Source: Holophagaceae bacterium | GTDB taxonomy: Bacteria > Acidobacteriota > Holophagae > Holophagales > Holophagaceae | DNA: 64,000 nt | Assembly (NCBI GenBank): GCA_009783055.1 | Contig: WRHW01000003.1 | Coordinates: 1 to 64,000 of the forward strand | Direction: 5' to 3' | Part shown: positions 44,851-50,661 of the stretch, piece by piece | Layout: each line of letters starts with the position of its first letter | Numbering within the stretch: the stretch's first letter is position 1 | The notes under the pieces: generated by a model | Told to the model about the DNA's origin: nothing | Seen by the model: the letters and a program-made list of their open reading frames with translations, nothing else | Database searches by the model: none | Program-made: the position numbers and the translations under genes

Positions 44851-45969
44851 TTACTGTTGGTAGAAATAGTCATCAATTTCAGTAAATGGCAAATTTAGTT
44901 CCAGTCGATAATATGTATTTATATCGTGTAATAATTCATCAATGGACTGGCTATCTAAAGCATTAAGCCATGCCTTAAGTTCATTAATAGTGATAATTTC
45001 TTCAATCGCTTGTTGATAACGCTCGCGAATAATTTTCATCCCACCAGACTTTTGCTTAATGTATTTATCTAACTGAGCAACAATAGAAAATTTGTCTTTA
45101 AGAGTTTTAATCACAAAAGTAATTGGAAAATGCATTACCTTGTCAATATCGAGTAAATATTTATCATAACTGCCTATCACTTCTGTCACTTGAAAAAAAC
45201 GTCCCAGAGGTCTCATAACAAAATCAATGCCACCGTCATTGGCATTTGTCCTTCCAGTTTTATATAAGGTCAGATACTGTTTTTGTAATTTTTCAGGTGA
45301 GTAACCAAAGAAAATTTTTGTGGTCTTGTAATGATTTTTCAAAATAGAAAATGAAATTATTTCAAAAATTCTGGCTTCAGATTGTTCATTAAGAAGCTCG
45401 CTAATCTTTGCACGTTTTTTCTTTACAGATTTCATCTTAATAAGTTCTTTAATATCAGTCAATAATTGGTTGTCTTTTGATACAAGCAGTCGAATGTATT
45501 CTTCTATGATTCGTAAGGCAATTTTTGAAACATCAAAATTATCAACGTACAAATATTCGATATGAATGGCATATTTCCCTTCATTGATTATTATTAGATC
45601 ATTCCCTGTCTCGGGCACTATTTTATTTCTAAATTCCCCGTTTACTCTTGAATTTAATGCATGGTTTTGTAATTTTTCACCACCATAAAGTTTACGAAAA
45701 AAAGCAAATAATTTAGTGTAATCATAACCGACAAATTGTTTATATTTGTTCGGTTTTTGGAAAAAATCATTTGAATAAAAGTGTAATATTGAATAGATAG
45801 CATAAATATTTGCGAGACTTCTGCGCGCTTTTGTATTGCCAAATATTGCTCCTGTCTTAAGATCAAGGTAGCGCAATAATGGGCTATTATTGAAAAAAGA
45901 ATCAACATTAAAGTCTATATCTGCTTGTTGAAAAGCCTCAACAATAATTCTTCTAATAAAATCTTTCAA
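44851..45969 (-). CDS. Probable type II restriction endonuclease
   Basis: A 372-aa protein paired with a DNA methyltransferase. Residues 239-264 read GRTNANDGGIDFVMRPLGRF then FQVTE, which fits a PD-(D/E)XK-type nuclease core of the GID...QVxE form seen in Mrr-like and many type II enzymes. No overall family is recognised. The TTG start lies inside the methylase stop (TTGA) with GGAGGG upstream, so translation is coupled. AT-rich composition differs from neighbours, suggesting recent transfer. Confidence 0.72.
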   Translation of the reverse strand: MKDFIRRIIVEAFQQADIDFNVDSFFNNSPLLRYLDLKTGAIFGNTKARRSLANIYAIYSILHFYSNDFFQKPNKYKQFVGYDYTKLFAFFRKLYGGEKLQNHALNSRVNGEFRNKIVPETGNDLIIINEGKYAIHIEYLYVDNFDVSKIALRIIEEYIRLLVSKDNQLLTDIKELIKMKSVKKKRAKISELLNEQSEARIFEIISFSILKNHYKTTKIFFGYSPEKLQKQYLTLYKTGRTNANDGGIDFVMRPLGRFFQVTEVIGSYDKYLLDIDKVMHFPITFVIKTLKDKFSIVAQLDKYIKQKSGGMKIIRERYQQAIEEIITINELKAWLNALDSQSIDELLHDINTYYRLELNLPFTEIDDYFYQQ

Positions 45970-46892
45970 TTTGAAACGCCCTCCACGGCAAAGCTTAGTG
46001 CTGTTTGTGATGAATGTTTGTAGTGGTCTTGCTTGGACTTGTTTTTTGTTTTGCGGGACTTATCTTGATAAAGCACTTCTCCATTATATTCAATAGCAAG
46101 CCCGGAGCGTCGAAGACCTATTTTGTAGTAATCAGGGTTAATGTCAATTCCAATCGCCTTTCTCCCTAATCGATTTGCAACAGCCGAAGTTGTGAATGAA
46201 CCACTGAAAGGGTCTAATACTATTTCCCCAGTATTGCTAGAAACCAGAATTATTCTTTCCAATAGAGATTCAGGCTTCTGACTTGGATGGTTTTCATATT
46301 CCTTCATTTTGTAGCGTACACGATTGAATTTCCAAACATTTCCTGGAACTTTCGTTGTACTATATGGCTGAGGAGGGGACTTCCTATAATCAATTAGATT
46401 ACGCTTTGCCCCAGTTTTTGCCTCAATCATAACATCCTTGTAGTTAAATGTATAATTAACATTCTCATTGTGGGTAATCATTAATATTGGCTCATAAAGA
46501 GAACCAAATTTTGCCTTGGATTGAACACCCGATGAATCATAAACCCAAACTATTCGATTGATTACATAATAATTTTCGTCAACATATCTATCTAAGGCGG
46601 GCATAAATTGGGTTGAGGACATGAAATACATCGTTCCACCATGTTTTAAGACCCGCATACATTCGTCAATCCATTTTCTACTCCACAATAGGTAGTCATC
46701 AATGTTTGAATATGTGTCCTTCGTGATGCCAAAGTCTTTTCCTAATCCATAAGGTGGGTCGGCAAAAATCAAATCAATTGAATTGGACTTAATTTTTTTA
46801 AGCACAGAAAGGGAATCCCCCAATATTACACATGAAGTATGATTGCATTGCTTTTCAAGACCGTCCATGTTGGAAAAAATATTTTGAAACAT
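45966..46892 (-). CDS. Type II DNA methyltransferase (beta class, N4/N6)
   Basis: A 308-aa adenine-N6 or cytosine-N4 methylase. Motif IV DPPY is at residues 45-48, and motif I DPFSGS at 226-231 with HPSQKP at 201-206, the order of the beta class. It protects DNA against the coupled endonuclease. Low GC. The methylase lies first in the two-gene unit, which allows protection before cutting. Recognition sequence cannot be read. Confidence 0.92.
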   Translation of the reverse strand: MFQNIFSNMDGLEKQCNHTSCVILGDSLSVLKKIKSNSIDLIFADPPYGLGKDFGITKDTYSNIDDYLLWSRKWIDECMRVLKHGGTMYFMSSTQFMPALDRYVDENYYVINRIVWVYDSSGVQSKAKFGSLYEPILMITHNENVNYTFNYKDVMIEAKTGAKRNLIDYRKSPPQPYSTTKVPGNVWKFNRVRYKMKEYENHPSQKPESLLERIILVSSNTGEIVLDPFSGSFTTSAVANRLGRKAIGIDINPDYYKIGLRRSGLAIEYNGEVLYQDKSRKTKNKSKQDHYKHSSQTALSFAVEGVSN

Positions 46893-48153: not shown

Positions 48154-50226
48154 TTAGGCCGTCCCCCCTACAACCAGTGCTGGACAAAGTATAGTCGGTA
48201 GGGCATCTGAAACTGGGACACCTTGGCCGTCCTTGCCACAGGTTCCTATGTCGAAGTGTTCCAGATCGTTGCCAATTCTGGTCAACTGTTTGAGCACTTC
48301 TGGCCCACACCCGGATAGGGTGGCATTTTTTATCTGGTAGGCGATTTTGCCATTTTCTACCCAATATCCTTCTGTCACTTGAAATACAAAGTTGCCGGTG
48401 ACAGTATCCACCTGCCCTCCCCCCATGTGCTTCACTAGAAGCCCTTTGTCAAGGCTCTGCAATATATCCTCGGGGTTTTCTTTTCCGGGGGCAAGGAAGG
48501 TATTTCGCATCCTCGGAATTGGGATGTGGCGGTAGCTGTCGCGTCTGCCGTTGCCTGTGGGTTCAGTTTCCATTTGCTTAGCAGTCTTGCGGGATTGGAG
48601 GTAGTTCTTGAGAATGCCATTTTCGATCAATACAATCCGTTGCGATGGCAAGCCCTCATCATCAATTGACTGTGAGCCTCGCTTGCTTGGCAAGGTGCCA
48701 TCGTCGATAATCGTAACTCCCTGTGCCGCAACTTGCTCTCCTAACATGCCAGCAAAAGCACTCATGCCTGTTAGGGCTAAGTCGGCCTCGAGTCCGTGGC
48801 CACAGGCTTCGTGGATCATTGTCCCACCTGCGCTACTTGAAAGCACGACTGGGAATGTACCAGCGGGAGCAGGTTTTGCATCCAGAGCCAAAACTGCCAG
48901 GCGCACCGCCTCTTTTGCAGTGCGCTCCACTGCTTCATCTGAAAAAAGCTCAAATCCACGCGATTCGCCCAGCACTTGGTACCCCGTTTCTATCTGGTCG
49001 CCCTCGGCGGCTGTTACGCTAATTCTCAAAACGCTTTGGACACGATAGTCTGATGTCAAGCGGGCACGCAATGACTCCCCTACCCTTTCCACATGTGCAT
49101 TCCAAACACACTGCGTACTATCTCCATACCCCACGGATACCTGACGGAGTGCCCCTTCGCGCAAAGTTTTTCCATGATCGCGTGCTAAAGCCTCTGCAGT
49201 CCTCACAACAGACACCTTTTCTCCGATAGGAACTTCGGCAGGGTCTTTTTCAATAGGACAAGGTGATGGGTAGTTTACAATTTCTAATGCCGAGCAGTGA
49301 ATGGCCTCACCATTACCTGGGGAGGCAAGTTCTGTAGCAACGTCTACCAGCTCGGTCACACTGGGTGCTATCAAATCAGCAAAGCGAGTTGTTTCGCCAT
49401 CCATCAACCGGATGCTGACTCCAAATGTCTCTGTGGCCAATACATCTTCCATTCGACCATCATCCATACCCAATCGACAGGCTCTGCGTTGTTCTATAAA
49501 AACTTCGCCATAGTCTCCGCCTTTGGTAAGCAGGGTATTTAGGACTGTTTGGAGTTGTTCGGCGGTATAGGGACATGTCATGGTATTGCTCCTGATTGTT
49601 TGGCGCACCGATTTCCATTTTGCCAGAATATCTTTTTCGGCGCATTCAAGTTGTTCATCGAGACAACGACCATCGGCAATAATGAGTAAATCACAATGTA
49701 ATACCTTTTCTGCGATTGTGGACTGAGAATTTATCCTTGATATTATGGCGGGTCTATCTAGCCCATCCCGTTGTCTGACTCTTTCTATTCTTTGCTCTTC
49801 TGGTGCATCCACAACCCATAGAGCATCAAATGAATGTCCCTTCCCGATCTCAATCCAGAGAGCCGCTTCCAGCACTACCCCCTTTGTGGATGTAGGTAGT
49901 TCTGCAACCTTCTTTTGTATTTCTCTCTCAATCAGTGGGTGCATTATGGCTTCCAGTTTTCTGCGGAGTAAGGGATTGGAAAATACTTTGGAGGCAAGTG
50001 AGGAGCGATCTAAATTGCCACTGCAATCTAATATTTCTGCCCCAAAGGCTCTCGTAATCTCATCCAGACCACTTGTTCCTAGCCCAACTACTTCCCTTGA
50101 GATTTGATCTGCGTCTATGACTACCCAGCCACGTTCTTGCAAGATTACTCCAACAGTGCTTTTTCCGGAAGCAATGCCTCCAGTGAGGCCGATGACTGGA
50201 AAGGGTGTTGATAAATAATCATACAT
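48154..50226 (-). CDS. Fused dephospho-CoA kinase and TldD protease
   Basis: A 690-aa open frame with two complete enzymes. Residues 1-215 are dephospho-CoA kinase (CoaE): P-loop GLTGGIASGKST, then DADQISREVV and HPLIE. Residues 216-690 are TldD, the metalloprotease that with TldE processes peptides: SSAGGTMIHEACGHGLEADLA holds the HExxxH zinc motif. TldD starts at an in-frame ATG (49579-49581) preceded by AGGAG with 7-nt spacing. So TldD may be made alone as well as in the fusion. The fusion is unusual because the functions are unrelated; loss of the CoaE stop is the simplest explanation. TldE is not in the window. No ribosome-binding site is seen before the CoaE start. Confidence 0.88.
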   Translation of the reverse strand: MYDYLSTPFPVIGLTGGIASGKSTVGVILQERGWVVIDADQISREVVGLGTSGLDEITRAFGAEILDCSGNLDRSSLASKVFSNPLLRRKLEAIMHPLIEREIQKKVAELPTSTKGVVLEAALWIEIGKGHSFDALWVVDAPEEQRIERVRQRDGLDRPAIISRINSQSTIAEKVLHCDLLIIADGRCLDEQLECAEKDILAKWKSVRQTIRSNTMTCPYTAEQLQTVLNTLLTKGGDYGEVFIEQRRACRLGMDDGRMEDVLATETFGVSIRLMDGETTRFADLIAPSVTELVDVATELASPGNGEAIHCSALEIVNYPSPCPIEKDPAEVPIGEKVSVVRTAEALARDHGKTLREGALRQVSVGYGDSTQCVWNAHVERVGESLRARLTSDYRVQSVLRISVTAAEGDQIETGYQVLGESRGFELFSDEAVERTAKEAVRLAVLALDAKPAPAGTFPVVLSSSAGGTMIHEACGHGLEADLALTGMSAFAGMLGEQVAAQGVTIIDDGTLPSKRGSQSIDDEGLPSQRIVLIENGILKNYLQSRKTAKQMETEPTGNGRRDSYRHIPIPRMRNTFLAPGKENPEDILQSLDKGLLVKHMGGGQVDTVTGNFVFQVTEGYWVENGKIAYQIKNATLSGCGPEVLKQLTRIGNDLEHFDIGTCGKDGQGVPVSDALPTILCPALVVGGTA
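49589..49593 (-). promoter_or_regulatory. Internal ribosome-binding site before TldD
   Basis: AGGAG on the minus strand, 7 nt before the internal ATG at 49581. It decides whether TldD (475 aa, the normal length) is initiated independently of CoaE. Confidence 0.6.
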
Positions 50227-50268
50227 TCAATTATGTTAAACTTATTTCGTTTGAAAAAGGGAGAGTGC

Positions 50269-50661
50269 ATGTCATTCAAAGATGATTTTAAGGGCTTTAT
50301 CACTAGGGGAAACGTTGTCGACCTGGCAATCGCAGTGGTTGTGGGTGGTGCGTTTGGAAAGATCGTTACTGCATTAGTTCAGGGAATCATCATGCCGGCG
50401 ATCAGTCTCATGCTACCCAACACTGAGTGGCATGAATGGACACTCGGCCCTTTCCAAGTAGGTATGTTACTTGGCTCCATCGTTGATTTTTTATTAATTT
50501 CTCTTGCTATTTTCCTAGTGCTCGTAAAGGGCTTTAGTGCCATAAATAATTTGAGGAATCGGCCAGAAGAGGTTCCAACTACAAAGGCTTGCCCATATTG
50601 CCTTGAGACGATACAGCTTGGTGCCAAAAAATGTAGGTTTTGCGCCAGTAGCCTGGAATAA
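50269..50661 (+). CDS. mscL: MscL mechanosensitive channel with C-terminal zinc ribbon
   Basis: A 130-aa large-conductance channel that releases solutes under osmotic downshock. The first helix carries GNVVDLAIAVVVGGAFGKIVTALV and the second LLISLAIFLVLVKG, both standard. The usual cytoplasmic helix is replaced by a zinc ribbon, CPYCLETIQLGAKKCRFC, with two CxxC pairs. The ATG at 50269 is chosen for GGGAGAG upstream. It is divergent from the CoaE-TldD gene with only 42 bp between, so the promoters must overlap. Confidence 0.92.
   Translation: MSFKDDFKGFITRGNVVDLAIAVVVGGAFGKIVTALVQGIIMPAISLMLPNTEWHEWTLGPFQVGMLLGSIVDFLLISLAIFLVLVKGFSAINNLRNRPEEVPTTKACPYCLETIQLGAKKCRFCASSLE

What the first reader, a model, noticed from the sequence alone, without database searches (positions are those of the whole stretch)
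48154..50226. CoaE-TldD fusion with a preserved internal start
Dephospho-CoA kinase and TldD protease are unrelated, yet share one continuous frame. The internal ATG with AGGAG at ideal spacing suggests that TldD was separate and that the CoaE stop was lost, or that two products (690 and 475 aa) are made.
Basis: partly seen in the sequence, partly recalled or inferred. Interest (0 to 1): 0.65.

Follow-up and report, generated by a model that had tools for sequence, protein, structure and literature searches.

The report
CoaE–TldD fusion keeping internal start
In one bacterial family (Holophagaceae) the last enzyme of coenzyme A synthesis is made joined to the protease TldD, because an old stop codon between two neighbouring genes was lost, and the old start signal for TldD has been kept inside the joined gene, so the cell probably still makes TldD alone as well.

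Summary
Window 48154-50226 (-) is one 690-aa frame: dephospho-CoA kinase (residues 11-191), a short hinge, then TldD (216-690), with the key active-site motifs checked intact. It is not a sequencing error. The same uninterrupted fusion occurs across Holophagaceae (about 70 of the 73 family genomes with a CoaE hit), and no second CoaE or TldD was seen. Other Acidobacteriota families have separate coaE-tldD-tldE genes. Two of these genomes have coaE and tldD in one frame with a single stop inside the tldD Shine-Dalgarno (TAAGGAG / TGAGGAG), nine nucleotides before the tldD ATG. In Holophagaceae the codon at that spacing is TGG (53/55), so the fusion probably arose by a stop-to-Trp change.

The internal start is under nucleotide-level selection. 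ATG is kept in 53/55 and a Shine-Dalgarno core in 49/55. Arg codon 213 is AGA in 35/42, against 2.5% over all Arg columns. Codons 213, 202, 218 and 200, all at the junction, are the four most unusual in the gene. Best reading: a 690-aa CoaE-TldD plus a 475-aa TldD. Genus g5 has lost the signal. A conserved box, TTCTG[GT]CA, 47 nt upstream of the ATG is unexplained. Neither product has been demonstrated.

The parts
48154..50226 (-). Fused coaE-tldD gene, 690 codons plus stop
   Evidence: Single open frame; conserved family-wide at 63-74% identity without internal stops
49654..50196 (-). Dephospho-CoA kinase (CoaE) domain, residues 11-191
   Evidence: PF01121 E 9e-47 and TIGR00152 147 bits, cut-off 65.6; solved CoaE structures match
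50155..50181 (-). P-loop GGIASGKST, residues 16-24
   Evidence: G16, G17, G21 and K22 of the P-loop conserved in 55/55
49579..49653 (-). Junction: end of CoaE C-terminal helix and hinge up to the internal Met
   Evidence: AlphaFold helix 190-212, confidence below 50 at 212-214, next helix from 222; no length change between codons 194 and 216 in the printed junction alignment
49614..49628 (-). Conserved nucleotide box TTCTG[GT]CA-NN-CTGGA (window: TTCTGGCAAAATGGA), -47 to -33 of the internal ATG; function unknown
   Evidence: Third positions T/G/A of codons 200-202 in 48, 54 and 49 of 55 sequences, against codon bias; exact full pattern found 0-2 times per genome in 10 genomes, its only copy being at the junction in five of them
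49591..49593 (-). Codon 212, at the distance from the tldD ATG where two unfused relatives have the coaE stop; TGG in 53/55 relatives, AGG in the window
49589..49593 (-). Shine-Dalgarno AGGAG of the internal tldD start
   Evidence: SD core in 49/55 relatives versus 15% background; Arg codon 213 is AGA 35/42
49579..49581 (-). Internal start codon ATG (Met216) for a 475-aa TldD
   Evidence: ATG in 53/55, GTG in one, GGC in one
48154..49581 (-). TldD metalloprotease, residues 216-690 plus stop
   Evidence: E. coli TldD 5nj5_A matches 224-690, E 1.8e-87; PF19289 E 1e-72
48796..48813 (-). Zinc motif HEACGH (HExxxH), residues 472-477
   Evidence: His, Glu and His invariant in 55/55; metal ligands in E. 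coli TldD (PMC5810440)
48238..48240 (-). Cys663, third metal ligand near the C terminus
   Evidence: Conserved in all 54 full-length sequences

Best explanation
Ancestrally coaE, tldD and tldE were neighbouring genes in an Acidobacteriota operon. In the Holophagaceae ancestor the in-frame coaE stop, which overlapped the tldD ribosome-binding site, became a sense codon (most likely TGA to TGG, Trp), fixing a CoaE-TldD fusion that is now the cell's only CoaE. The old SD and ATG are kept by selection, so the mRNA gives a 690-aa CoaE-TldD (all the CoaE) and, by internal initiation, a 475-aa TldD. The free TldD presumably pairs with TldE as the peptidase. Shown: fusion, family-wide conservation, unfused neighbours, nucleotide-level conservation of SD and ATG. 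Inferred: stop-to-Trp as the mutational step, internal initiation, free TldD pairing with TldE.
For: Fusion in nearly all family members outside genus g8, the few others having no hit or a cut contig; only CoaE copy. Separate adjacent coaE-tldD, mostly with tldE, in seven other families (plus f5, overlapping by 14 nt, where no tldE was seen); in two genomes they are in frame with one stop in TAAGGAG/TGAGGAG. Fused CoaE sequences group together in the tree, with only the two g8 free CoaE attaching among them on a long branch; fused TldD is a clade placed with the operon-type TldDs. ATG 53/55; AGA at Arg213 35/42 versus at most 11% at any other Arg column on the same tree. Codons 213, 202, 218 and 200 have the highest codon surprise in the gene (1.34-1.58; next 0.68; SD 0.22). 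Of 12 columns with at least 80% start-type codons only 216 carries a conserved SD (89%; the others at most 11%). SD matches are stronger than under synonymous resampling (mean -6.2 versus -4.1 kcal/mol).
Against: No ribosome profiling or proteomics. Sequences are related, so counts are not independent. In single genomes the SD is only modestly stronger than the synonymous null (often P 0.04-0.2). Genus g5 lost the SD, and two of its five members lost the ATG, so internal initiation is dispensable. An unexplained conserved box (codons 200-202) shows some other nucleotide constraint acts here too. Which codon was the stop is ambiguous by one codon: an ungapped TldD alignment puts it at 213 rather than 212.
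Confidence: 0.75

Rival explanations
1. Only the fusion is made. The SD-like sequence and rare codons at the junction serve as a programmed translational pause that lets CoaE fold before TldD, and Met216 is just a linker residue.
For: The conserved unusual codons (CTT, GCA/TCA, AGA) lie at the domain boundary; SD-like sites inside genes have been proposed to slow ribosomes (own knowledge).
Against: Pausing does not need an ATG at fixed spacing, yet ATG is kept in 53/55 while neighbouring residues vary. The SD and ATG correspond to the true tldD start of unfused relatives. The specific bases TTCTGNCA are kept rather than any rare codon.
Confidence: 0.13
2. The fusion is an assembly or sequencing error removing a coaE stop.
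For: None found. One relative (G032) has a frame break at an N run downstream of the junction, showing that assembly faults do occur.
Against: The same frame, linker and junction occur in about 70 family genomes, including isolates such as Geothrix fermentans DSM 14018 and Geothrix terrae.
Confidence: 0.01
3. The fusion polypeptide is not functional as such: TldD/E or another protease cuts it at the hinge after translation, giving CoaE and TldD.
For: The hinge at 213-221 is predicted flexible, and TldD/E trims unfolded N-termini (PMC5810440).
Against: It would not explain selection on SD and codon choice; residues next to the hinge vary, so no obvious cleavage motif.
Confidence: 0.08
4. The conserved junction is mainly a regulatory RNA or protein-binding element, with the SD only part of a translational operator that adjusts TldD output.
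For: Box TTCTG[GT]CA at -47 is conserved about as strongly as the SD, and both are missing in genus g5.
Against: No conserved RNA structure, no conserved pairing partner in the gene, no Rfam match, no set of further copies that would form a regulon. It would still imply internal initiation.
Confidence: 0.2

Closest known systems
CoaE, dephospho-CoA kinase (PF01121, TIGR00152)
   Same: P-loop kinase domain with conserved motifs; only CoaE copy in the genomes searched
   Different: Carries a C-terminal TldD protease throughout Holophagaceae except genus g8
TldD of the TldD/TldE peptidase (E. coli 5nj5)
   Same: HExxxH plus C-terminal Cys; a TldE relative is encoded elsewhere in the same genome
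   Different: N-terminal kinase fusion plus a preserved own start, versus a free gene in E. coli
Other CoaE fusions: bifunctional coenzyme A synthase of animals (CoaD-CoaE) and CoaE with an extra C-terminal domain (PRK03333)
   Same: CoaE joined to a second domain
   Different: Partner is an unrelated protease, not an enzyme of the same pathway
In-frame internal-start genes (e.g. archaeal Cas11b, PMC11899642)
   Same: Large and small C-terminal product from one frame by internal translation
   Different: Here the internal start is apparently the retained start of a formerly separate gene, with unfused relatives still visible

Membership tests
CoaE (dephospho-CoA kinase) | Match to family model above curated cut-off | tested here: met
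   TIGR00152 147.3 bits versus 65.55; PF01121 159.5 versus 27
CoaE (dephospho-CoA kinase) | P-loop GxxxxGK[ST] and conserved Asp of the D-A-D motif | tested here: met
   G16-x4-G21-K22-S23 and D40 present, conserved across 55 sequences
CoaE (dephospho-CoA kinase) | Phosphorylates dephospho-CoA | not testable with these tools
   Needs an assay; only CoaE homologue in the genome
TldD metalloprotease | Three PmbA/TldD domains | tested here: met
   PF01523, PF19290 and PF19289, all above gathering score
TldD metalloprotease | HExxxH and C-terminal Cys metal ligands | tested here: met
   HEACGH 472-477, Cys663; ligands per PMC5810440
TldD metalloprotease | NCBIfam TldD equivalog cut-off | tested here: not met
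   PRK10735 321.6 bits, cut-off 513: right superfamily but not an equivalog of the enterobacterial protein by that model
TldD metalloprotease | TldE partner present in the genome | tested here: met
   TldE-like second match on contig C40 of the window's genome; identity as TldE inferred from homology
Dual-product gene with internal start | In-frame start codon with SD conserved beyond amino-acid constraint | tested here: met
Dual-product gene with internal start | Both products detected | not testable with these tools
   Needs proteomics or start-site profiling

The most novel reading that the evidence does not exclude
The junction is a translational control element: a specific box (TTCTG[GT]CA at -47) together with the retained SD adjusts how much free TldD is made relative to CoaE-TldD, so that coenzyme A synthesis and peptidase output are tied through one mRNA.
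Probability: 0.2. Interest if true: 0.7.

Novelty: new variant of a known kind. Interest (0 to 1): 0.5.

Why it matters
It is a well-preserved record of gene fusion by stop loss: unfused relatives show the in-frame stop inside the ribosome-binding site, the fused family shows a Trp codon at that spacing, and codon choice shows the old start is still selected. It predicts that an essential enzyme exists only as a fusion to a protease in almost a whole bacterial family, that genome annotation misses a second protein there, and it gives a natural contrast (genus g5, start decayed) for asking why free TldD is needed.

Tried and rejected
Sequencing error: rejected by relatives. Conserved RNA hairpin at the junction: some Geothrix sequences show one in single folds, but RNAalifold finds no consensus structure. 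Long-range pairing of the box within the gene: at most 9/55 share a site. Box as regulon motif: full pattern found 0-2 times per genome in 10 genomes, with no repeated set of sites. Overlapping ORF in another frame: stop counts show no protected frame; one antisense frame even has more stops than expected. Internal sigma-70 promoter in the window near codon 200: none on the minus strand. Reduced structure around the internal start: generally less structured than the gene average outside g5, but not consistently beyond a synonymous null. Rfam: no match. Papers: none found joining dephospho-CoA kinase, TldD and fusion.

Full report
What is there. Window 48154-50226 on the minus strand is a single 690-codon frame. 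Residues 11-191 are dephospho-CoA kinase (PF01121, E 9e-47; TIGR00152 above cut-off) and residues 216-690 are TldD (all three PmbA/TldD Pfam domains; E. coli TldD 5nj5 aligns to 224-690, E 1.8e-87). The CoaE P-loop (G16, G17, G21, K22) and the TldD HEACGH motif are kept across 55 distinct relatives, and the C-terminal metal-binding Cys in all 54 full-length ones. An AlphaFold model (mean pLDDT 75) ends CoaE with a long helix 190-212, has a low-confidence hinge at 212-214 and resumes with a TldD helix at 222, so Met216 sits in the hinge.

It is not an error. In a search of 60 genomes the same full-length frame was found without internal stops across the family at 63-74% identity, and the search for related loci returned 27 fused loci, including Geothrix fermentans DSM 14018 and G. 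terrae. Using only the CoaE half, 73 of 77 family genomes had a match; about 70 of these lie in long fused frames (one, G032, is interrupted by an N run just past the junction) and no second full CoaE appeared. Two genomes of the reduced-genome genus g8 (about 1.2 Mb) have a free CoaE of 215-240 aa and no TldD match. G003, in the window's own genus, lacks both, probably an assembly gap since CoaE should be essential.

Ancestral state. In seven other Acidobacteriota families (f47, f53, f73, f64, f13, f50, f40) coaE and an operon-type tldD are adjacent and separate, usually with tldE next. Family f5 has the two genes overlapping by 14 nt in different frames, with no tldE match in the stretch read. 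Spacing varies, including ATGA overlaps. In two f47 genomes (G128, G227) coaE and tldD are in one frame with a single stop, TAAGGAG...ATG and TGAGGAG...ATG, nine nucleotides before the tldD ATG. In the fused family the codon at that same distance from the ATG is TGG in 53 of 55. TGA to TGG is one substitution, so stop-to-Trp is the simplest step; an ungapped TldD alignment would place the stop one codon later, so the exact codon is not certain. The CoaE tree keeps the fused sequences together with free CoaE of the same-class family f3 among the nearest outsiders; the g8 free CoaE attach on a very long branch near the window's genus (83/10 support), compatible with secondary loss of TldD but not proof. 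The TldD tree places the fused clade among the operon-type TldDs, not with the TldD of same-class families f2 and f3.

The internal start is selected. Across 55 distinct fused genes Met216 is ATG in 53, GTG in one and GGC in one. Arg at codon 213, which completes GGAG, is AGA in 35 of 42, against 2.5% AGA over all 62 Arg columns and at most 11% at any other single one; those columns share the same tree, which controls for relatedness. Ranking every codon by how unusual it is for its own gene, the top four are 213, 202, 218 and 200, with scores 1.34-1.58, about 6-7 SD above the mean, the next at 0.68. Among 12 columns where at least 80% of sequences have a start-type codon, only 216 has a conserved SD core (89% versus 0-11%); background over all codon positions is 15%. 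SD pairing is stronger than under synonymous resampling on average (-6.2 versus -4.1 kcal/mol), though modest in single genomes. The six without an SD core are five g5 sequences and one g10 sequence.

An extra element. Codons 200-202 read xTT CTG xCA (T 48/55, G 54/55, A 49/55 at third positions), even when the amino acid changes Leu/Ile/Val or Ala/Ser, in genomes whose third-position GC reaches 0.9. The pattern TTCTGKCANNCTGGA occurs 0-2 times per genome in the ten tested; in five of them its only copy is at this junction (the window's own junction reads ATGGA and so is not matched). No consensus RNA structure, pairing partner, Rfam family or overlapping frame was found. It is absent from the g5 sequences that also lost the SD. 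Its function is unknown.

How it probably works. The coaE start in the window has no recognisable SD, while the internal start has AGGAG-N7-ATG. The fusion supplies all CoaE, because no stop lets CoaE be made alone. Internal initiation supplies extra free TldD, which should pair with TldE (encoded on another contig). E. coli TldD/E is a heterodimer that trims unfolded N-termini (PMC5810440). Initiation at Met216, the TldE pairing and any regulation are inferences.

Verdict. The fusion and the internal-start conservation are solid; two products are likely (about 0.75) but not demonstrated. No description of this fusion was found in the paper library. Searches outside Acidobacteriota covered only the best matches, so fusions elsewhere are not excluded.

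Noticed in passing
window 49614-49628 (-): Conserved box TTCTG[GT]CA-NN-CTGGA upstream of the internal tldD start in nearly all Holophagaceae outside genus g5; function unknown.
   Followed up: partly
L112 and L113 (genus g8, genomes of about 1.2 Mb): Reduced-genome family members have a free CoaE that ends close to the fusion junction and no TldD match; possible secondary loss of TldD from the fusion.
   Followed up: partly
window 50226-50269: coaE-tldD and mscL are divergent with about 42 bp between starts; no SD before coaE, promoter-like TTTTCA-N16-CATAAT at 50257-50230 (-) suggests a very short leader.
   Followed up: no
window 44851-46892 (-): Adjacent DNA methyltransferase-like (DPPY) and possible restriction endonuclease ORFs, overlapping by 4 nt; looks like a restriction-modification pair.
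   Followed up: no
L120 (G054, another family): coaE and tldD overlap by 14 nt in different frames.
   Followed up: partly
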